Assembly: GCA_031266015.1 (NCBI GenBank)
Contig: JAISBU010000033.1
Location: 62,001-126,000 of the forward strand
DNA from: Prevotellaceae bacterium
GTDB lineage: Bacteria > Bacteroidota > Bacteroidia > Bacteroidales > UBA932
Direction: 5' to 3'
DNA: 64,000 nt
Each line of letters begins with the position of its first letter. Position 1 is the first letter of the stretch. Of the stretch, positions 2,283 through 60,076 are shown in pieces. The translations under genes were made by a program, and so were the position numbers. Below the pieces are notes generated by a model that had not been told where the DNA came from, made no database searches, and saw nothing but the letters and a program-made list of their open reading frames with translations.

Positions 2283-3413
2283 ATGGCGAAAGGTCAAAAA
2301 ATGCTGCGAATACAATTCCTGTCCTTTGTACGAAAGGAGTTCTACCATGTGCTGCGTGATAAGCGTACGCTAATGGTTTTGCTCGGACTGCCCATTGTAC
2401 AGATTCTGCTGTTTGGTTTTGCCCTTACCAGTGAAGTGAAGCATGCTAAAATCTTGCTATTGGACAATGCCAAAGATGTTGCTTCGCAAAGCCTGGTTAC
2501 AAAAATTTCTGCCAGCTCATATTTTGATATTCAGCAAAGCGTACAATCTTACGATGAGCTGGAGGAGGCGTTTAAAAAGGGGAAAGGCGCCTGCGCGCTG
2601 ATCATTCCGTACAATTTTGCCTCGGATATTCAGCACGGTGGCGGTGTCCGGCTTCAGCTTATTGCAGACGGTTCGGACGTAAACGTATCAAAGACGGTGG
2701 TTAACTACCTTACGGCCATTACCGGAGATTTTGTGGCAGCGCAACATCCAACGGCAAATCTCCCCATGCATATAAGCTTGAATCAGCACATGCTCTATAA
2801 CCCCGAAATGAGCGGCTCTATGAGCTTCATTCCCGGAGTTATGGCGCTTATTTTGCTCATACTTTGTACCACGCTTACGGCCGTATCTATCGTGCGGGAG
2901 AAGGAGCTGGGAACTATGGAGCTGCTGTTGGTATCGCCCTTCAAGCCTATACTGGTGATTCTTGCAAAAGCCATTCCCTATTTGACAGTTTCTATCGTAA
3001 ACTTTACGGTAATTCTGCTGCTCAGTTTCTTTGTGCTTGATATGCCCATACGTGGAAATTTGCTGCTACTTTACGCCGAGGCCGTGCTTTTTATCATTGC
3101 CTGCCTTTCTATAGGCTTGCTGATTTCTAATCTGGTAAAGACACAACTCGCTGCCATGCTCATTTCTATGATGGGAACCATGCTGCCCACTATGATTTTT
3201 TCGGGCATATTTTTTCCTGTAGAAAATATGCCGATATTGCTACAAGCCTTTGCCAATCTGATTCCCGCCCGTTGGTTTTATGTGGTTGTTAAAGCGGTGA
3301 TGCTGAAAGGGCTAGGATTTTCAGTAGTATGGAAAGAAGCTTTGGTTATGCTTGGTATGACGGTTGGCCTGCTGGCCTTGAGCTTGAAAACATTTAAGGT
3401 GCGCTTGGAGTAG
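2283..3413 (+). CDS. ABC-2 type permease, YbhS/YhhJ-like
   Basis: A 376-residue inner-membrane subunit with ABC-2 layout: an N-terminal cytoplasmic stretch (RKEFYHVLRDKRTLM), one membrane helix (LMVLLGLPIVQILLFGFAL), a soluble domain of roughly 150 residues, then five hydrophobic segments. The motif VREKELGTMELLLVSPFKP is the conserved ABC-2 stretch between the second and third helices. It lies 13 bp after the second ATPase gene and 38 bp before a second, homologous permease, so the two probably form a heterodimeric pore. The ATG at 2283 is used. Confidence 0.88.
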   Translation: MAKGQKMLRIQFLSFVRKEFYHVLRDKRTLMVLLGLPIVQILLFGFALTSEVKHAKILLLDNAKDVASQSLVTKISASSYFDIQQSVQSYDELEEAFKKGKGACALIIPYNFASDIQHGGGVRLQLIADGSDVNVSKTVVNYLTAITGDFVAAQHPTANLPMHISLNQHMLYNPEMSGSMSFIPGVMALILLILCTTLTAVSIVREKELGTMELLLVSPFKPILVILAKAIPYLTVSIVNFTVILLLSFFVLDMPIRGNLLLLYAEAVLFIIACLSIGLLISNLVKTQLAAMLISMMGTMLPTMIFSGIFFPVENMPILLQAFANLIPARWFYVVVKAVMLKGLGFSVVWKEALVMLGMTVGLLALSLKTFKVRLE

Positions 3414-48817: not shown

Positions 48818-48930
48818 TCTTCGATGTGTACAGTTGCAGGTAAGAAAAAATTAGCCTTTGCGCTCATGCAGTTTTACATACCGTACAATAAAAAAAAGAT
48901 TCTGCCGTTATAAAGATTGTAGAGGTGTAT

Positions 48931-48962
48931 TTTGTAAAAAGCAAAAAATTGCATTACCTTTG
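48931..48962 (+). promoter_or_regulatory. Promoter of the giant FISUMP gene
   Basis: TTTG (48931-48934), 20-bp spacer, TACCTTTG (48955-48962): a full consensus match. Transcription would begin near 48969, giving a leader of about 345 nt before the ATG at 49314. Confidence 0.75.
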
Positions 48963-48990
48963 CCTCAATAAGTATTTGAAAATCAAAAGC

Positions 48991-49025
48991 AATCATCTGC
49001 ATATCGCCTTGATATACAGATGATT
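48991..49025 (+). promoter_or_regulatory. Leader hairpin 1 of the FISUMP gene
   Basis: AATCATCTG (48991-48999) pairs with CAGATGATT (49017-49025). After one C-A mismatch, ATATC pairs with GATAT, with loop GCCTT. This gives 14 base pairs close to the expected 5' end of the transcript. Confidence 0.7.
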
Positions 49026-49099
49026 ATAGATAAATCAGGGTGGTAATTATTATAGCGAAAAACAGGAAAAAACCAGTATAGAAATATAGCGTAAGCGTA

Positions 49100-49163
49100 C
49101 TTCTTATCGTCTTGTGCCGGAAAATCTGCAAAATTTTACTTAAGCGAACAAGATAAGACGAAG
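49100..49163 (+). promoter_or_regulatory. Leader hairpin 2 of the FISUMP gene (possible antiterminator strand)
   Basis: CTTCTTATCGTCTTGT (49100-49115) can pair with ACAAGATAAGACGAAG (49148-49163) at 13 of 16 positions. The 3' arm can instead pair with 49209-49217 in the terminator stem (9 bp with one bulged G). Confidence 0.55.
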
Positions 49164-49195
49164 CTCTTTCGATACACTGCATTTGATTGCGGAGT

Positions 49196-49273
49196 AGCGT
49201 GGGTTGACCTTATTTGTCCTTAGAGAAATCACAGAATTTCAGTTGACAAATAAGATCAGCCCACGCTCTTTTT
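49196..49273 (+). terminator. Terminator-like hairpin in the FISUMP leader (candidate attenuator)
   Basis: Left arm 49196-49218 (AGCGTGGGTTGACC...) pairs with right arm 49245-49267 (...CAGCCCACGCT) over 23 positions with one G-T and one C-A. It is followed by CTTTTT (49268-49273). It lies 40 nt before the start codon and downstream of the promoter at 48931, so it could stop transcription before the gene. Confidence 0.7.
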
Positions 49274-49313
49274 GCATATGCTAAAGAAAATAAATCTGCA
49301 ATCATATTATTTC

Positions 49314-52300
49314 ATGAGACGTAAACTATTCATACTGATCGGTATACTACTATCGACGGTAGTTGTTCGGGCAAGCGAGGTAGCCTACTTGACTCGTACC
49401 AATGTAGATCTGAAAAATCGCCTGATCTATGGGGAGCTGGTATACGACGCTCCTGACCAGTGCGGGCGGTACGAGCTTCGGTTTCGTACCGAAGTTCATA
49501 GAGGTGGAACCATTGTGTCTACCCGGCGCGTCAGTCCGATCGGCTCTGCCATTGTAAGTAATACCGATCGGTATACTTTGGCGGGCGACAGCGCTATAAC
49601 CTCTCTTACGGCCAGCGGCTACAAGATCAAGGCTAATCTTCCTGCAAACGTGCAACCTTCGGATAGCGTAGCCTTGGCCGTTGAGGTGTATAAGAAAGCA
49701 GACGAGTGCTCTAGCTGTGGTGTAGGAGGTACCAGGTTGACCTTCACCGAGCATGACATAGCCCCGGATTGCCCGTATTCCAACCTGAACGACCCCCAGC
49801 TGCTAGCCTGTAACCTGGCTAGCAGCGGAGCCGGACGGCGATGGGAGCTTTACTATAAAGATGTTCGTGATTGCAAAATATACCGTACGGTACATCAGGT
49901 TGGCAGCACAAAATTTTGGATGGCGCAAAACCTTAGCTGGGACGGCGCCGGTAAGAGCTACCCCACTGCCACCAGTAGCGACACCATCGGTAAGCTATAC
50001 ACCTGGTACGAAGCCGTTACCGGACAGAAAGACGGCACTCTCCAAGCTGATAGCTATGTTCCTGTCAATCAAAATATTGGTCCTCAAGGTGTATGTCCCT
50101 CCGGCTGGCATGTGCCCACCACTAAAGAGTGGCACGATCTTGGGCTAGCCTTTGGTAGTGGCGTTACCGCTCAGGGTGATGACTGGAACAGCCGGGTGCT
50201 GTCCGAAATGGCTGCTTTTGGCGATGATCCCAACAGCTTCAAGACCAAAGCACACTTGAATAACCAGAACGACCGCTACGGATTCAGCTGGAAGGCTAGC
50301 CCCTTTGACGGAGTTCAGCCCGTGGGTGGCGGCAACGTTCGCTACGGCGCTCTTTGGACTGTTCCCCTTACGTGGAGTAATGACCTGTCTGTGAGCCGTA
50401 TAGTGGCCAGCCCCCGCAGCGGTGTGTGGGCCAACAACCCTATTACCGCCGACAATAGCCAGGGTCAAAAGAGCGACTACTTGCCCGTGCGCTGCGTGAG
50501 CGGCCAGGGCGAAGAGGTGCTCGCCGGCGCCCCAAAAGTTCTCCAAAAGCTCAACGTCACCAGCCTCACCGCTTATCCGGTCGATATTGCCGACCGTGGC
50601 AGCACCCTTAAGCTTGCGGTGCAGAGCGCCGTGCAGCCTGCCGGTACCATGTATTCCTGGAAGGCTACGCCCCTTGACGGCGGCGATGCGTGGGATATGG
50701 GCGCCTCTACCGGCGCCACTAGCCTGACTACCACCACACCGGCAGTTAACTTTGATGCACAGTACGAAATTAGCGTGGTGATGAGCGCCCCCGGGTACAT
50801 ATCGGGGACTAAGAGCCTGACTTACGCCATTAGGGGCTGCGACCCCGTGGTGCAGGGCGCCATGCCGAACAACCTGACCGCCTGCCCCGGCGCCACCCTT
50901 CCCGCGCTGAACCCAACGGCCATTGGCGGCGTTGCGCCGTTGAACTACCAGTGGCAGATGCGTATAGGCTCGGGCAGCTGGGCGTCTATTGCGACCAACG
51001 GTACAAGCCAGAGCTACACGCCCACGGCGCCTAGCGGGGTAAGCCAGACGGCGTACTACCGGAGGGCTGTAACCAGCTGTGGTCAAACAACATACAGCGA
51101 CGAGTGGAAGGTAACCACCTACGATAAAATTACGCAGCCTGCCGTGCTTGCGCTTATAACGCTTTGCACAAACTCCACTGCAACCCGCAGCTATGGGGTG
51201 GCTACCGGTGGAACCAGCGCGTATACCTACCTATGGCAGAGCAGCACGGATAATGTGGCGTGGTCTGACGGCGCGGGAGCTAACAACGCACAGAACTACA
51301 CCTTTACCACCGGCGCTACCGATAACTCTTACCTTTACCACCGGCGTATTGCCACCAGCAGCACTTGTCCGACCATTAAGGATACAAGCGTGGTGCACCC
51401 AACGCGCGTATATAGCTCCGGTCCCGCATTTACTATCGTCACGCCTGCAAATACTAATGTTTCCGTATGCCCGGATCAAACGGGAGTGCCGGTATCTAAC
51501 GTTACGGTAACGGCTCCGGCAGGATCCACCGTTACCACCGTACAGTGGCAGAAGATGACCACCATAGCAAAAGCAAATTCAGCATGGGCGAATGAGGGTA
51601 CCGCCGCCACGCCAAATACGGCGACCGCTACTGCTACCCATACCGCCGTAACCGCATTGACCGGAAATAATGATGTGCTGTACTATAGAGTTAGAGCGGT
51701 AGCTTGCGGCGTTGAGGCATTTTCTGCAAACGTGCTTGTAGCCACCACTCAGGGCATGCGTACAAACCCGAGCCTGGGCGCACAAAAAGCATGTCCGGGA
51801 GCAAGCGTAACCTTAGCTCCTGCCGTTGCTACTGCAGGGCAGGGAACCATCACCTACAAGTGGCAGTGGAGCGATAATGGTGACAATACCTCCTTTACAG
51901 ATGTTACTACGCCCGTTGCTGCCGGTACTTGGTCTACTGCTAACGTTAGCATAACAACACAAGCGCCTGCTACAGAGGAAGTTACTAAATATTACCGGCG
52001 TGTAGCCCGTAGTAGCTGCAGCGTAGCGGAAAACTACGGAACCCCTATATCGTTAACGGCAATTTCTACTGTTACGCAGCCTGCGCTGGCCGATGTACAG
52101 GCCTGTGTGGGCGGCGACGTAATACTTACGCTGGCCGCAGCCACCGGCGCTTCCGGTATAACCTACCAGTGGCAGCAGCTGAATGTGGGCGACAACGAGT
52201 GGGAAAATATTGCCGCACCCAATGGTACCGCGCTGAACTGTACTGTACCTTCGCCAACAGCGGGGAGCCAAAACTACTACCGGCGTCTGGCCACAGCGCC

Positions 52301-55300
52301 CGGCTGCGGTAGCGTAGCGAGCAACAGCACAACGGTTACTGCCATGCAGTCCTACGTTACCGTAAAGAACTTGCAGGCTCTTTACGAGGCTCCTGCAGGC
52401 ATAACCGTTTCGCTAGCCCCGGTGGTGGCCTCGCAGGGCGCCGTTACCTACCAATGGCTAAGCAGCCCCGACGGAGCTGTCTACACCCCTGTAGTCGGAA
52501 CCGTCGGTACGCAACCGGCGATGGCCGTAACGCTTACCGGCGACGGCGAGTATAGCCCCTACTACAGGCTGGTGTATAGCGCCGCCTGTAACGCCACCCC
52601 CGACACTACCGCCCCCACGCGAGTATTTGCCTCGCTGGGATGCCCCTACAAAGGCCTGGATATGATACCCAACTCCTGCGCCCGCCGTACAGCAGGCGAG
52701 CAAAACTGGGAAGCCTACATTGTAGACAAACGCAACAGCAAAGAGTACCGCATTGTGCAGATGCCCGGCGGCGACTGGTGGTTTGCCGAAAACCTGGCCT
52801 TCAAAAAAGGCGAGGAGCAGAAAGACTGGCAGTACTCTTTTGATAACGACCCCAGCTACTTTGACAAGCTGGGCCTGCAGTACCCCTACTTTAACCAGCC
52901 CTGTCCGGCAGGCTGGAAAGCGCCGGAGCCAACCGACTGGAGCAAAATGCTAAACTGCGCTAACGGAAATTGCGCCGCAACAACCTTCAACCTCAACTTT
53001 GAGACAGACGCATTTTTTACCGGCGGCGGATACACATTGCCTATAGGACAGTTGGTTGCCAAGCTGCGCGTAACGGAGATGCCCTGGAGGGCAAACTCCA
53101 TCGGTAGTCTGACGAACCCAACCATTGTCGGAACAGACGACTGGGGTTTCTCCATGAGAAGCAGCGGTTACGGCTCATCCAGTACAGACGGCGTTAACTA
53201 TGGTGCGTTCAGGGCCTCTACGGCTAACGCTTGGAATGTGTTTCTTGGCTACTACAGCTGTGTAAATTGCGGCATAGTTAGGCAGTATACTTCGGGAACA
53301 ATCAACGATATGAAGACCTGCTGCGGCTCGGCAGGAGCCTACGTGCGCTGCGTTTTCGACAGCGTACAGGCCACCGCCACCGCCCCCGAAAAGATAGAGG
53401 CAACCTACATTGCCCTGGCCAACGACGGCACGTCGGGTACCACCACCCTTACCGCAAGCGGTGGCGTGGAAGCTATGGGCGGCGAGTACCGCTGGGGAAC
53501 CGGCGCTATAGGAACCAACGTAATACCAAACCAGAATACCTCCACGCTTGAAAACGTAAACCCTTCAGTAACAACCACGTATTGGGTACAGCGCAGCAAC
53601 GCTGACGGCACGTGGGCTTCCGGAGCAGCAACCATGGAAATTGTGCTGCAGCCCTGCCCCTACGCCGAATCCGACAGGGTGCAGCTCGAGCTGTGCCGTC
53701 GGCGTGGTGCAGGCGAAAAAAACTGGGAAGCCTACGTGCGCGACAGCCGCGACAGCAAAACCTACCGCATAGTGCGCCTGCCCGACGGCCAGTGGTGGAT
53801 GGCGCAAAACCTCAACTACACCAGCGGGCTTACCTACCAGGAGCAGGCCGCCTCTCCCACAATTGCTACCGATGCCGCCGCTATTACTGCCGTAACGGGC
53901 AGCTACTGGTGCCCGCAGGGCGTATACGTGGGCGATGCCGCCACGGTAGTGCCCGGCGGCGCGGCAGCCTGCAACCTGTGGGGAGCCTTTTACTCATGGC
54001 CAACCGCCATGAGCCTCAACGGTAATGGAACGCTTAGCGCAAGCAGCTCAAGCGCCCCAAGCGGCGTGCAGGGCGTATGTCCTGGCGGCTGGCACCTGCC
54101 CTCGCACCCCGAGTGGGCCACCATGCTGGCCTGCGTTACTCTGGGCAACTGCAGCGACGGAACCTACCTTAGCGCTTACGACCAGTGGCTGGGCGACAAC
54201 ATTCGCTACCTTAAGGGAAAAGAAGTACGCAACCCGGTGCTGCCAACCCTGATGACCTGGATTAACGGCCCCGTGGCAACGAACGGTACTGACGATTGGG
54301 GCTTCTCTCTTTACCCTGCGGGCTACCGCCACGAGAACGGCAACTACTACGTTATGGGCATATACGGCTTGTTTGAATCGGCAACGGAAAATCCGGTTAA
54401 TAGTCTTTACCGGCGTGCAGTGGCGTTATACTATGGCAGAAGAGAGCCATACATGGCAACCTCGTACCTGAAGGTGCGCTCCTTCTCTGTACGCTGTGCG
54501 CGCGCCGCCGCCGCCACAGGCTTAACCTCCGCACCGCCCGAGTACCTCAATGCCAGCTACACCGCCATAGGTACGCCAACCTCTGTTACGCTGACCGCCG
54601 TAGGGGCGCAAACCGTAACAGGAACGCAGTATGAGTGGGGGCGCGGAACGGTGGTAGGACAAAACCCAATTATCCGCATTACCGAAAACATTTTCACCCT
54701 TACCCCCGACAACGCGGCGGATACCGCCTTTTGGGTACGGCTGGTGGAATCCGATGGCATCACCTTTAGCGCAGGCGTTACCATTACCGTAAAAATACAG
54801 CCCGAAACCTGCCCCTACAAGGGAGGAGACCTTATTACCGGAACCTGCAAGTTGCGTACCGGAAAAGCCCGAAACTGGACCGCGCAAATTAAAGACCCGC
54901 GCGACGGCAAAACCTACCCCATAGTGCTGCTGCCCGACGGCAGGTGGTGGATGGCAGAAAACCTCCGCTACACTAAAGGTCTTACAGACGCCGTAATGGG
55001 AAACCTGCCAAGCACCGCCACCACCATGGCCGCCGGAGCGGTCTTCAAAGGCTACTACTGGTGTCCCTCAGCGGCAAACCTGGTCGATACCGAGACAAAA
55101 GGGTTGGCCTCGCAGTGCGAAAAGTACGGCGCACTTTACCCCTGGCTAACGGCTATGAGTCAGGACGGTAAGGGCAACACCGAGGCCATCACCGACGCCG
55201 TGCCAAGTACCGCCCGCGGGGTATGCCCGCTGGGCTGGCACTTGCCCTCAGTGCCGGAAACGCAGGCCATGCTCGATTGCGTGGAGGGTAACTGCGACCG

Positions 55301-57698
55301 CAGCTACTTTGCCGGAGGCGTTGGCAACTGGCGCGGAGCCTACGCAGGCATACACCTCAAGGGCGTAAACACCTTTTTTGTATCCTCCAGAGGAACCGAG
55401 GGGCAAGACACCTACGGCCTTAACTTGCAGCCGGCGGGCTACAGGCACTATGATGGTATGATGTACCGTACACAATACTACGGCGGCATATGGCTGTCGT
55501 CCGCAAAAAATGTCGACGGCGCCGGGCGTATGTGGTGGGATCAGGCGTATAGCGGAATTTACCACGAGTACCAGTGGAACAGGTTTAGAGCATTATCCGT
55601 TCGCTGCGTATGGAATGGGCAGGACGCCACCCCTACCGTAACCACCGCCCCCGACAGCCTGATGGCCAACGCCTCGGCGGCGCCAACAGGTACCGTGGTC
55701 AAGTTTAGCGTTATTGGCGGCAAAATGACCCCCGCCGCCGCCTACCAGTGGGGCTACGGTGTAACGCCGGGCAGCAACGTTATAGCCGGGCAAACCGGCG
55801 ATACGCTGGATTACGCCATTGCCGCCGCACCTGCCAATACCGTATGGGTACGCCGTTTGGATGGTGCAACCACCACCGATGCACTGACGCTCACCATTGC
55901 CATAGAAACCTGTGCTGACCAGCTACCGGCCGGCTACATTACCGGTACTTGCAAGCGCAGACCCGACGGCGCCAAAAACTGGACGGCGCGCATGCGCGAC
56001 CCGCGTGATGGTAAGGAGTATGGCATAGTAATGCTTAACAAGTGGTACATGGCAGACTACCTGCAGTATACCGACGGACTGCGCGAAAACATAGAGTGGC
56101 GACCGGCCGCTATGGGCGTAGACTACCAGTTCCCCACCTACCTCAAGTACGACGGCAAGCCGCTGGGCAATACGCCCCCTCAAGATGGCTGGATTAGCGA
56201 CCGTAATGCTTCTACGCGAGGCGTATGCCCCGCGGGTTGGCACGTGCAAAGCGCTGCCGAGGCAAACGCCTTTGCCATGAAGGTGCTGGAATGCGACAGT
56301 TGGCTCGATTTTACCACTGATGCGGCGTGGCTTTGCAAAACAGGCCCCAACGACGCTGCCACCATACATAAGTACTGGGGGCTAAACTGGCTTAACCCAA
56401 CGGGTACATGGAATAGCACCAACTCTTTGGCCTTCCAAAACGGCGTGGGAGCTACCTCCGCAAATGGTATTGACTGGAATTTTCCTTCAAGAGTCGGCAA
56501 TAACAATCAATGGGGATCCAACTCAGCGGACAGGGCGTATAGCTTCCCGAACTACGGAAACCACTACGTGTCATGCATAAGTGACGTAGGGTATAGCGCG
56601 CCAAGCGCCATTACCTCAAGCGTAGGCGCCACCGCCGTAAGCGGTACCGCCAACGTGGTACTTACGGCAGTAGGTCCGGCGCTTAACGCCAGCGAAAGCT
56701 ACCGGTGGAGCGTGGGCGCCACGGCTGGCGCCACGGTGTTGCAAACCAGCTCCGCTGCCACCTATACCATTGCTTCGCTAACCAACACCGCCACCTACTG
56801 GCTGCAGGTAGGGAACGGTAGCACTTGGAGCAGTCCCGTAGCCATTACCATTACTGTACTATCCTCAGGAACAGGCAACTACGTGCTGAACTACACGGGA
56901 GCGGTACAAACCGTAAGCCTGTCGGCGGGTACCTACCGGGTAGAAGCCTGGGGAGCAAAGGGAGGAGATGGCCGCCAAGTAAATGCTGCATTAATACGTT
57001 ATCACGGAGGTAAGGGCGCCTACGTTGCAGGAACTATTACGCTGGCCGGCGCCACCACGCTGTACGCCTACGTGGGCAAGCAGGGAGGCAATACCCCCAG
57101 AGAGAAGTTAAGCTTTGGTGCAGGAGGCTGGAATGGCGGCGGAGATGGCGGCACCGATCCCGACCCCTCTGACCCTGAGAATGGCGGCGGTGGCGGCGGC
57201 GCCTCAGACTTGCGCCTCGCCAGCGGTGCCTGGGACGATACCACCAGCCTTAAGAGCCGGATTATAGTAGCCGGTGGCGGTGGCGGCGCCACCAGCAATG
57301 ACTATCAGTTAATTAATTGGGGCTCTGACGGAGGAGGTCTTGTCGGCCTGTCGCAGCCGCCGTATACCTACGGCGGCACCCAAACCTCGGGCTTCGATTT
57401 TGGCAAGGGAGGCAAGGGCACCCAGAACCTGACGGGCATAAACTATGGCGGCGGCGGCGGCCATGGCGGCGGTTATTGGGGAGGTATCACCGGTAGCACA
57501 GATATTGTCAACGGAGTTGGCGGCGCAGGAGGCTCGTCGTACATTTCCGGCCACCCGGGCTGCAACGCGGTAAATCAAACCAACTCCAAAAAACCGTTGA
57601 ATAGCCCTGACCACTACTCGGGCAACGTATTTACCAACACGGTTATGCAGGATGGCGTAAACTGGGGAGATGGAAGAATAGTAATAACGAGGCAGTAA
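49314..57698 (+). CDS. Giant exported modular protein: five FISUMP modules, Ig-like repeats, glycine-rich ALK/LTK-like tail
   Basis: 2794 residues from ATG 49314, which gives a clean signal peptide (MRRKLFILIGILLSTVVVRA); upstream starts overlap the leader hairpin. Order: FISUMP module 1 (residues about 151-399, KFWMAQNLSW, GVCPSGWHVPT); a beta-domain; about six Ig-like repeats (510-1109, each ending in a YYRR-like strand); FISUMP 2 (1110-1350); then FISUMP 3 (1448-1734), 4 (1833-2104) and 5 (2200-2429), each followed by a beta linker; and a glycine-rich domain (2520-2794) with YRVEAWGAKGGDG, GGGGGGASDLRL and VNGVGGAGGSSY. Module 5 is degenerate (MLNKWYMADYL in place of LPDGRWWMAENL). No type IX sorting domain is evident. 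Likely a surface or secreted binding protein. Confidence 0.85.
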   Translation: MRRKLFILIGILLSTVVVRASEVAYLTRTNVDLKNRLIYGELVYDAPDQCGRYELRFRTEVHRGGTIVSTRRVSPIGSAIVSNTDRYTLAGDSAITSLTASGYKIKANLPANVQPSDSVALAVEVYKKADECSSCGVGGTRLTFTEHDIAPDCPYSNLNDPQLLACNLASSGAGRRWELYYKDVRDCKIYRTVHQVGSTKFWMAQNLSWDGAGKSYPTATSSDTIGKLYTWYEAVTGQKDGTLQADSYVPVNQNIGPQGVCPSGWHVPTTKEWHDLGLAFGSGVTAQGDDWNSRVLSEMAAFGDDPNSFKTKAHLNNQNDRYGFSWKASPFDGVQPVGGGNVRYGALWTVPLTWSNDLSVSRIVASPRSGVWANNPITADNSQGQKSDYLPVRCVSGQGEEVLAGAPKVLQKLNVTSLTAYPVDIADRGSTLKLAVQSAVQPAGTMYSWKATPLDGGDAWDMGASTGATSLTTTTPAVNFDAQYEISVVMSAPGYISGTKSLTYAIRGCDPVVQGAMPNNLTACPGATLPALNPTAIGGVAPLNYQWQMRIGSGSWASIATNGTSQSYTPTAPSGVSQTAYYRRAVTSCGQTTYSDEWKVTTYDKITQPAVLALITLCTNSTATRSYGVATGGTSAYTYLWQSSTDNVAWSDGAGANNAQNYTFTTGATDNSYLYHRRIATSSTCPTIKDTSVVHPTRVYSSGPAFTIVTPANTNVSVCPDQTGVPVSNVTVTAPAGSTVTTVQWQKMTTIAKANSAWANEGTAATPNTATATATHTAVTALTGNNDVLYYRVRAVACGVEAFSANVLVATTQGMRTNPSLGAQKACPGASVTLAPAVATAGQGTITYKWQWSDNGDNTSFTDVTTPVAAGTWSTANVSITTQAPATEEVTKYYRRVARSSCSVAENYGTPISLTAISTVTQPALADVQACVGGDVILTLAAATGASGITYQWQQLNVGDNEWENIAAPNGTALNCTVPSPTAGSQNYYRRLATAPGCGSVASNSTTVTAMQSYVTVKNLQALYEAPAGITVSLAPVVASQGAVTYQWLSSPDGAVYTPVVGTVGTQPAMAVTLTGDGEYSPYYRLVYSAACNATPDTTAPTRVFASLGCPYKGLDMIPNSCARRTAGEQNWEAYIVDKRNSKEYRIVQMPGGDWWFAENLAFKKGEEQKDWQYSFDNDPSYFDKLGLQYPYFNQPCPAGWKAPEPTDWSKMLNCANGNCAATTFNLNFETDAFFTGGGYTLPIGQLVAKLRVTEMPWRANSIGSLTNPTIVGTDDWGFSMRSSGYGSSSTDGVNYGAFRASTANAWNVFLGYYSCVNCGIVRQYTSGTINDMKTCCGSAGAYVRCVFDSVQATATAPEKIEATYIALANDGTSGTTTLTASGGVEAMGGEYRWGTGAIGTNVIPNQNTSTLENVNPSVTTTYWVQRSNADGTWASGAATMEIVLQPCPYAESDRVQLELCRRRGAGEKNWEAYVRDSRDSKTYRIVRLPDGQWWMAQNLNYTSGLTYQEQAASPTIATDAAAITAVTGSYWCPQGVYVGDAATVVPGGAAACNLWGAFYSWPTAMSLNGNGTLSASSSSAPSGVQGVCPGGWHLPSHPEWATMLACVTLGNCSDGTYLSAYDQWLGDNIRYLKGKEVRNPVLPTLMTWINGPVATNGTDDWGFSLYPAGYRHENGNYYVMGIYGLFESATENPVNSLYRRAVALYYGRREPYMATSYLKVRSFSVRCARAAAATGLTSAPPEYLNASYTAIGTPTSVTLTAVGAQTVTGTQYEWGRGTVVGQNPIIRITENIFTLTPDNAADTAFWVRLVESDGITFSAGVTITVKIQPETCPYKGGDLITGTCKLRTGKARNWTAQIKDPRDGKTYPIVLLPDGRWWMAENLRYTKGLTDAVMGNLPSTATTMAAGAVFKGYYWCPSAANLVDTETKGLASQCEKYGALYPWLTAMSQDGKGNTEAITDAVPSTARGVCPLGWHLPSVPETQAMLDCVEGNCDRSYFAGGVGNWRGAYAGIHLKGVNTFFVSSRGTEGQDTYGLNLQPAGYRHYDGMMYRTQYYGGIWLSSAKNVDGAGRMWWDQAYSGIYHEYQWNRFRALSVRCVWNGQDATPTVTTAPDSLMANASAAPTGTVVKFSVIGGKMTPAAAYQWGYGVTPGSNVIAGQTGDTLDYAIAAAPANTVWVRRLDGATTTDALTLTIAIETCADQLPAGYITGTCKRRPDGAKNWTARMRDPRDGKEYGIVMLNKWYMADYLQYTDGLRENIEWRPAAMGVDYQFPTYLKYDGKPLGNTPPQDGWISDRNASTRGVCPAGWHVQSAAEANAFAMKVLECDSWLDFTTDAAWLCKTGPNDAATIHKYWGLNWLNPTGTWNSTNSLAFQNGVGATSANGIDWNFPSRVGNNNQWGSNSADRAYSFPNYGNHYVSCISDVGYSAPSAITSSVGATAVSGTANVVLTAVGPALNASESYRWSVGATAGATVLQTSSAATYTIASLTNTATYWLQVGNGSTWSSPVAITITVLSSGTGNYVLNYTGAVQTVSLSAGTYRVEAWGAKGGDGRQVNAALIRYHGGKGAYVAGTITLAGATTLYAYVGKQGGNTPREKLSFGAGGWNGGGDGGTDPDPSDPENGGGGGGASDLRLASGAWDDTTSLKSRIIVAGGGGGATSNDYQLINWGSDGGGLVGLSQPPYTYGGTQTSGFDFGKGGKGTQNLTGINYGGGGGHGGGYWGGITGSTDIVNGVGGAGGSSYISGHPGCNAVNQTNSKKPLNSPDHYSGNVFTNTVMQDGVNWGDGRIVITRQ

Positions 57699-59815: not shown

Positions 59816-60047
59816 TTTACGCTTCCTATCGTCTCCTGTTTAATTACTTAAACTTCTTATAATCAGATATTTAAACTGATATGCTTGCTGGCTGCCACAA
59901 GAATTGGGCGGGCATTCGGCTCGTACTTTTCCCTGTCAGCTGAAAATTTTTTAACGCCGTTAGCTTTGTTAGCTTTTTTTAGGCTGTTTTGAACCTACAA
60001 TAAAAGCTAAAACGAGTTTAAACCCGAAAAATAATCGGTTGTAGCTC
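59816..60047. other. Divergent intergenic region rbr-rpsL
   Basis: No gene. A direct repeat GTTAGCTTTGTTAGCTTTTTTT occurs near 59958-59980. The rpsL promoter follows. Confidence 0.4.
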
Positions 60048-60076
60048 TTGGATTCTAGAAATTTTTCCTACCTTTG
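60048..60076 (+). promoter_or_regulatory. Promoter of the str/S10 ribosomal operon
   Basis: TTG (60048-60050), 18-bp spacer, TACCTTTG (60069-60076). Transcription would start near 60083, giving a leader of about 100 nt. Confidence 0.6.

What the first reader, a model, noticed from the sequence alone, without database searches (positions are those of the whole stretch)
48931..49313. Candidate transcription attenuator in front of the giant FISUMP gene
A consensus promoter (48931-48962) is followed by about 345 nt of leader with three hairpins. The last (49196-49267, 23 positions, then CTTTTT) looks like a terminator yet lies inside the transcript, 40 nt before the start codon. The 3' arm of hairpin 2 (49148-49157, ACAAGATAAG) is nearly the same sequence as part of the terminator's right arm. 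It can pair with the terminator's left arm (49209-49217, CTTATTTGT), leaving one bulged G. This is the 1:2 / 2:3 / 3:4 layout of classical attenuators. I recognise no known riboswitch or T-box, and no leader peptide with an obvious amino-acid code, so the signal would be new to me.
Basis: partly seen in the sequence, partly recalled or inferred. Interest (0 to 1): 0.72.

Follow-up and report, generated by a model that had tools for sequence, protein, structure and literature searches.

The report
Self-pairing leader RNA, copied genome-wide
The hairpins in front of this giant surface-protein gene are one (worn) copy of an undescribed RNA switch-like leader that many Bacteroidota carry in up to 130 or more copies per genome, mostly ahead of exported proteins, each intact copy holding its own private self-matching sequence code.

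Summary
Promoter, long hairpin (-35.5 kcal/mol), U-run and the alternative 2:3 pairing are at the stated places. But it is not a one-off attenuator. It belongs to a structured RNA family absent from Rfam 15. About 23 good copies lie in this 2.5-Mb genome, and at least 132 in a relative of 2.3 Mb. The family was found in 57 of 395 Bacteroidota genomes sampled, plus Polaribacter, Sunxiuqinia and contigs labelled Chlorobiota. Copies share two conserved hairpins, P1 and P3. Their apical loops pair with each other through three short helices (a:a', m:m', b:b') that differ in every copy yet stay complementary: cis -27.5 against trans -11.2 kcal/mol; 22 G.U against 1 A.C in a:a', so the sense-strand RNA is selected. 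The element sits between a Bacteroidota promoter and, usually, an exported-protein gene; here and in at least eight other copies that gene is a FISUMP paralogue. A downstream hairpin loop can compete for the 3' arm of P3. Most likely it is a 5'-leader switch acting by conditional transcription termination; structure and context are shown, the switching and its signal are inferred. The window copy is a divergent member: it keeps promoter, P3 and U-run but has lost the loop-loop match.

The parts
48930..48962 (+). Bacteroidota-type promoter (TTTG 48931-48934, TACCTTTG 48955-48962); transcription start expected near 48968
   Evidence: Sequence; the same -7 box TAnnTTTG lies within 250 nt upstream of 21 of 23 copies in this genome, 4.0 expected.
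48991..49025 (+). Hairpin 1 between promoter and element (15-bp arms); peculiar to this copy, not part of the family
   Evidence: Inverted repeat I2, -15.0 kcal/mol; no counterpart seen in the upstream sequences of the other copies.
49090..49274 (+). Whole element: copy of the multicopy leader-RNA family (P1, linker, P3, U-run)
   Evidence: Found by R3, a model built without this copy and without its nearest paralogue (46.5 bits, E 3.8e-8, next best in the window 0.095); also R1 and R2; blastn to a second copy in the genome and to another family.
49090..49114 (+). s1, left strand of P1 (irregular in this copy)
   Evidence: Alignment A7.
49115..49147 (+). P1 loop: positions of a, h1 hairpin (AAAATCTGCAAAATTTT, 49121-49137) and b
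   Evidence: Alignment A7; in intact copies this loop pairs with the P3 loop; here the cis duplex is only -10.6 kcal/mol.
49148..49163 (+). s2, right strand of P1 (ACAAGATAAGACGAAG); can pair with s1 or with s3
   Evidence: Sequence; alignment A7.
49184..49193 (+). TGATTGCGGA, pairs over 10 bp with 49295-49304 (TCTGCAATCA), closing a helix around P3; seen only in this copy
   Evidence: Minimum-energy fold of the leader.
49196..49217 (+). s3, left strand of P3, the terminator-like hairpin
   Evidence: Inverted repeat I1; conserved in all aligned copies.
49218..49245 (+). P3 loop: positions of b', h2 hairpin and a' (complementarity to the P1 loop lost here)
   Evidence: Alignment A7.
49246..49267 (+). 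s4, right strand of P3
   Evidence: Inverted repeat I1.
49268..49273 (+). U-run (CTTTTT) after P3
   Evidence: At least 5 T in 8 in 175 of 179 copies.
49295..49304 (+). 3' partner of 49184-49193
   Evidence: Minimum-energy fold.
49314..57698 (+). Downstream gene: giant exported protein with four FISUMP (Fib_succ_major, PF09603) domains and a C-terminal glycine-rich domain (PF12810)
   Evidence: hmmscan; ORF.

Best explanation
The feature is a divergent copy of an undescribed family of cis-acting 5'-leader RNAs of Bacteroidota. SHOWN by sequence comparison: each leader lies between a Bacteroidota promoter and the start codon, in the sense orientation. It carries two conserved hairpins, P1 and P3, the second followed by a U-run. 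In intact copies the apical loops of P1 and P3 pair with each other through three short helices whose sequence is private to each copy. A further hairpin, P4, lies after the U-run in many copies, and its loop can pair with the 3' arm of P3 (s4). Genes behind it mostly encode exported or surface proteins. INFERRED: the leader is a conformational switch. P3 with its U-run acts as an intrinsic terminator that stops most transcripts unless it is prevented. The P1-P3 loop-loop contact controls whether P3 forms or persists, and in transcripts that read through, P4 captures s4 so that P3 cannot re-form near the start codon. The promoter-proximal part carries either a two-codon open reading frame (ATG-NNN-stop) or an rRNA-type boxA in part of the copies, which points to the ribosome or to Nus factors as the input that sets the switch. 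In the window copy, promoter, P3 and U-run remain but the loop-loop match and P4 are lost, so it is either a constitutive attenuator or a decaying copy.
For: Homology without circularity: blastn and model R3 built without the window copy. RNA structure: cis against trans loop pairing -23.4/-10.0 kcal/mol over 54 copies, -27.5/-11.2 over 178 copies, and in one genome 40 copies at -30.5/-10.7 with the own partner best in 39 of 40. Unsupervised covariation ranks a:a', m:m' and b:b' at the top of all column pairs; 613 doubly changed cells against 223 shuffled. Pairing is selected on the sense strand: 22 G.U against 1 A.C. Leader position: -7 box upstream in 21/23, 62/102, 10/11 and 33/41 copies against 4.0, 19.7, 2.9 and 7.3 expected, and 1/23, 3/102, 0/11 and 0/42 in the 70 nt after the element. 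U-run in 175 of 179. P4 loop to s4 with at least 6 Watson-Crick pairs: 45% cis, 20% trans. Exported-like downstream genes 79/122 against 88/274 background ORFs, p = 1.7e-9. Two-codon ORF in 65/177 against 25.5 expected, with out-of-frame controls at background. boxA-like motif in 22/40 leaders of one genome against 0.1 expected, like the rRNA-operon boxA of a relative.
Against: No transcript data, so neither termination nor read-through has been seen. The U-run can also pair with an A-run at the 5' end of the element (AAAAAGCG with CGCTTTTT), so it need not be a terminator tail; in 8 of the 23 copies of this genome it falls below 6 T in 8, and several Flavobacteria-like copies have CTTTCTG instead. 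P4 is transcribed after the U-run, so its pairing with s4 fits translational control or mRNA stability as well as termination. The window copy lacks the hallmark loop complementarity and P4. No ligand or protein partner is known, and the downstream genes are too varied to name a signal.
Confidence: 0.58

Rival explanations
1. The element is a 5' leader, but it acts after transcription: the compact P1-P3-P4 fold controls translation start or protects the mRNA from nucleases, and the U-run is only the 3' strand of an outer A:U helix.
For: The U-run is complementary to the conserved 5' A-run; an outer A/U or G/C helix around the whole element is seen in several copies (e.g. TACGCGCA with TGCGCGTA in L099). 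P4 lies shortly before the start codon and binds s4 only after read-through. U-runs are degenerate in some copies.
Against: A U-run directly after a strong GC-rich hairpin is kept in 175 of 179 copies; a boxA-like motif, a transcription-elongation signal, is kept in one lineage.
Confidence: 0.25
2. A stand-alone small RNA gene: promoter, RNA and terminator, with the downstream gene read from its own promoter.
For: Promoter before and terminator-like end after the element; multicopy with trans-pairing potential in principle.
Against: Almost no -7 boxes between element and start codon (1/23, 3/102, 0/11 and 0/42), and the spacer is often only 20-70 nt; fixed orientation and distance to exported-protein genes; loops pair in cis and hardly in trans.
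Confidence: 0.1
3. A mobile repeat (MITE- or REP-like) or DNA cruciform; complementarity is kept by DNA-level processes such as template switching, not by RNA function.
For: Dispersed, up to 132 copies per genome, frequent contig ends near copies, chimeric or truncated copies, overall inverted-repeat character.
Against: Mismatches in a:a' are 22 G.U against 1 A.C, which marks the sense-strand RNA; orientation, promoter and distance to the gene are fixed; copies differ most where they pair, the opposite of recent transposition.
Confidence: 0.05

Closest known systems
Classical transcription attenuators (trp/his-type leaders; Bacteroid-trp RF01692 in this phylum)
   Same: Leader of an mRNA with mutually exclusive hairpins and an internal terminator-like hairpin; short ORF near the 5' end in many copies.
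   Different: No amino-acid-coding leader peptide (the ORF has two codons), no biosynthetic target genes, and three private loop-loop helices not known from such leaders; no Rfam match.
Riboswitches with many copies per genome (e.g. c-di-GMP riboswitches)
   Same: Many copies per genome in front of surface and exported proteins; tertiary loop contacts; expression platform with terminator (from general knowledge).
   Different: Conserved bases lie in helices, not in a ligand pocket; the loops vary freely as long as they pair; no Rfam riboswitch family matches.
Processive antitermination leaders (boxA/nut sites, put RNAs, EAR, LoaP-dependent leaders)
   Same: RNA structures near the promoter of long transcripts; a boxA-like motif in one lineage.
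   Different: boxA-like motif missing from most copies including the window; a terminator-like hairpin is part of the element itself; not matched by any Rfam model.
Flavo-1 RNA motif (RF01705) and the 64 structured 5' regions reported in Flavobacterium psychrophilum (PMC9723704)
   Same: Structured RNA of Flavobacteriaceae of unknown function; some are 5' leaders.
   Different: Flavo-1 does not match any copy at its gathering score and occurs in both orientations (PMC9723704); whether one of the 64 regions is this element could not be checked, as supplements were not readable.

Membership tests
The new leader-RNA family (this work) | Sequence and structure match to a model built without the copy tested | tested here: met
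   Window copy 46.5 bits, E 3.8e-8 with R3.
The new leader-RNA family (this work) | Promoter upstream, element in sense, exported-protein gene downstream | tested here: met
   FISUMP gene at 49314.
The new leader-RNA family (this work) | P3 hairpin followed by U-run | tested here: met
The new leader-RNA family (this work) | Copy-specific complementarity between P1 and P3 loops (a:a', m:m', b:b') | tested here: not met
   In the window copy the cis duplex is -10.6 kcal/mol, no better than trans. The family as a whole meets it. The copy is therefore filed as a divergent or decayed homologue, not a typical member.
The new leader-RNA family (this work) | P4 hairpin whose loop pairs with s4 | tested here: not met
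   No P4-like hairpin between 49274 and 49313; the only run of 6 pairs with s4 lies inside the gene.
Transcription attenuator (works like) | Mutually exclusive hairpins, one a terminator, inside the transcript | tested here: inconclusive
   Layout present; exclusivity possible on paper (s2:s3 or s3:s4; s4 with s3 or with the P4 loop), not observed.
Transcription attenuator (works like) | Regulated premature 3' ends at the U-run | not testable with these tools
   Needs RNA data.
Leader-peptide attenuator (trp/his type) | Leader ORF with codons of the regulated amino acid | tested here: not met
   Only two-codon ORFs ATG-NNN-stop, in part of the copies.
Known riboswitch, T-box or other Rfam family | Score above the family's gathering threshold | tested here: not met
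   no hit on the element in the window, in 13 loci from relatives or in 11 Flavobacteria-like loci.
Mobile repeat / DNA cruciform | No strand preference in pairing; orientation random relative to genes | tested here: not met
   22 G.U against 1 A.C; fixed sense orientation and promoter position.
boxA-dependent antitermination leader | boxA-like sequence near the 5' end of the leader | tested here: inconclusive
   22/40 leaders in one genome, 6/102 and 4/42 elsewhere, 0/23 in this genome.

The most novel reading that the evidence does not exclude
A bacterial genome can carry over a hundred leader RNAs of one fold in which every copy is keyed only to itself: the loop-loop lock of each leader is complementary in cis and useless in trans. 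The orthogonal locks would let a cell control each member of a large family of paralogous surface proteins separately (for example, one or a few expressed at a time) with a shared RNA machine, a regulatory principle not known so far.
Probability: 0.15. Interest if true: 0.95.

Novelty: new variant of a known kind. Interest (0 to 1): 0.8.

Why it matters
A structured leader present in a sizeable share of Bacteroidota, in tens to more than a hundred copies in some genomes, is missing from Rfam 15 and was not found in the papers I could search. It would be one of the more abundant regulatory RNA folds in the phylum and sits on surface and exported proteins, the genes through which these bacteria meet hosts, phages and polysaccharides. 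Its copy-specific loop-loop pairing offers natural sets of orthogonal RNA locks and a direct test of how large paralogous surface-protein families are regulated.

Tried and rejected
Rfam at gathering and permissive thresholds for window and relatives: only tRNAs elsewhere in the window, one unrelated group II intron in L031 and chance hits. Sigma-70 promoter and short-loop terminator scans miss the features because the promoter type and loop length differ. An invertible promoter was looked for: no long inverted repeats flank the promoter. blastn for neighbour genomes found only 3 of 41 genomes; covariance models were needed. DNA cruciform or mobile element rejected by the G.U/A.C ratio and fixed context. 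A simple global G.U/A.C count over whole arms was uninformative because of conserved unpaired bases; restricting to helix a:a' was decisive. RNAduplex of s4 against the whole spacer separated cis from trans only weakly; a run-length test did better. Bulk Pfam annotation of downstream genes showed no single function (81 families, most in one or two proteins). Literature searches for FISUMP regulation, Bacteroidetes leader motifs and SusC leaders returned nothing on this element. IS110 bridge RNAs, retrons, diversity-generating retroelements and attC sites were considered from memory and not pursued: no transposase, reverse transcriptase or guide layout was noticed.

Full report
OBSERVATION. The promoter-leader-hairpin-U-run arrangement is in the sequence as described. 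The promoter is of the Bacteroidota type (TTTG, 20 nt, TACCTTTG), so the sigma-70 scan misses it. The leader folds better than shuffles (z = -4.1).

IT IS A FAMILY. blastn against related genomes found a second copy in the same genome, ahead of a paralogous FISUMP gene, and one in another family of the order (read). A pattern from the hairpin arm hit 17 of 393 genomes of the order, up to 14 times in one genome, and 41 named contigs including Polaribacter glomeratus, Sunxiuqinia indica, a Chryseobacterium MAG and MAGs labelled Chlorobiota. Covariance models R1-R3 gave 31 raw matches in this genome, 23 usable after removing reverse-strand and partial hits, 25 and 31 matches in two others, 57 of 395 genomes across the phylum, 35 of 60 relatives and 132 matches in G014, a 2.3-Mb genome of the same family. 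To avoid circularity R3 was built without the window copy and its nearest paralogue; it still finds the window copy at E 3.8e-8.

ANATOMY. 5' to 3': promoter; a short A-rich stretch with a two-codon ORF or a boxA-like motif in part of the copies; s1-[a-h1-b]-s2 (P1); a linker, in many copies a small hairpin P2; s3-[b'-h2-a']-s4 (P3); a U-run; in many copies P4; start codon. The four arms are conserved. The loops vary from copy to copy, yet a pairs with a', m (loop of h1) with m' (loop of h2), and b with b'. RNAduplex energies are -23.4 in cis and -10.0 in trans (54 copies) and -27.5 and -11.2 (178 copies). A search over all column pairs puts exactly these helices on top (z up to 27). In alignment A7, m:m' is 97% paired with changes on both sides at all six pairs, and doubly changed cells number 613 against 223 in shuffles. 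In helix a:a' there are 400 Watson-Crick, 22 G.U, 1 A.C and 13 other contacts; because G.U is tolerated and A.C is not, selection acts on the sense-strand RNA and not on a DNA cruciform. In G014, 40 sampled copies give -30.5 against -10.7, the own partner is best in 39 of 40, and none of 1560 cross pairs reaches the cis mean.

P4. After the U-run many copies have a hairpin with a variable stem and a loop near GGGAYUG. Its loop pairs with s4, with matching changes on both sides: CAACTCC with GGAGTTG, TTGTCC with GGACAA, TAGTCC with GGACTA, CAAACCC with GGGTTTG, TCAGACCC with GGGTCTGA. Runs of at least 6 Watson-Crick pairs occur in 45% of copies in cis and 20% in trans between copies with different s4. 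So s4 can pair with s3 or with the P4 loop.

CONTEXT. The -7 box lies upstream far more often than expected and is almost absent between element and gene, so the element is a 5' leader. Exported-like products follow in 79 of 122 cases against 88 of 274 background ORFs (odds ratio 3.9, p = 1.7e-9); the signal test is a crude hydrophobicity and lipobox rule applied equally to both sets, and neighbouring paralogues are not independent. In this genome at least nine copies precede FISUMP-type paralogues; in G014 most sampled copies precede one expanded family of exported proteins with a shared N-terminal motif; in Flavobacteria-like genomes several precede SusC-like receptors (judged by eye from the N-terminus). 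Two-codon ORFs (ATG-NNN-stop) occur in 65 of 177 leaders against 25.5 expected, with out-of-frame spacings at background. A boxA-like motif occurs in 22 of 40 G014 leaders against 0.1 expected and resembles the boxA of rRNA operons in a relative.

THE WINDOW COPY. It keeps promoter, P3, U-run and position, but its loop-loop duplex is -10.6 kcal/mol, no better than with foreign loops, and it has no P4. It has instead a 10-bp helix, 49184-49193 with 49295-49304, around P3. It is a divergent member, possibly decaying or turned into a plain attenuator. Conclusions about the loop-loop lock rest on the other copies.

MECHANISM. Shown: leader position, RNA-level selection on the pairings, conserved hairpin plus U-run, and competing partners for s4. 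Inferred: that P3 terminates transcription, that the P1-P3 lock and P4 decide the outcome, and that ribosomes or Nus factors provide the input. A post-transcriptional role is the main rival, because the U-run can pair with the 5' A-run and P4 acts after read-through.

STATUS. As a kind of thing it is a structured cis-regulatory mRNA leader, so I call it a new variant of a known kind. The unusual parts are the private self-complementary code in each copy and the copy number. I did not find it in Rfam 15 or in the searchable literature; unread supplementary lists of two large screens remain (PMC9723704, PMC8040213), so prior listing under a catalogue number cannot be excluded.

Noticed in passing
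G014 (same family, 2.3 Mb), e.g. L306-L345: At least 132 copies of the leader in one small genome, most sampled ones ahead of an expanded family of exported proteins sharing an N-terminal motif (VWVWVDY-like).
   Followed up: partly
L054:2352-2517 (-), L100: Chimeric copies whose P1 loop matches another copy's P3 loop better than their own, suggesting recombination between copies.
   Followed up: no
L157:1790-1882 and 2448-2540 (-): Truncated copies with P1 but without P3, in tandem ahead of near-identical genes.
   Followed up: no
Leaders of many copies, e.g. L099, L092, L102, L075: Two-codon open reading frame ATG-NNN-stop (ATGACATAA, ATGGTATAA and others) 20-35 nt after the -7 box; similar to the minigenes of phage lambda bar (from memory).
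   Followed up: yes
L212, L213, L211: Small Xre-like regulators encoded divergently about 120 nt upstream of copies ahead of SusC-like or other exported-protein genes.
   Followed up: no
window 59952-60059 (+): Very weak hit of model R3 (E 0.095) shortly upstream of rpsL; probably chance, but an S12 leader could be looked for.
   Followed up: no
L031:120-195: Group II intron domain near one copy.
   Followed up: no
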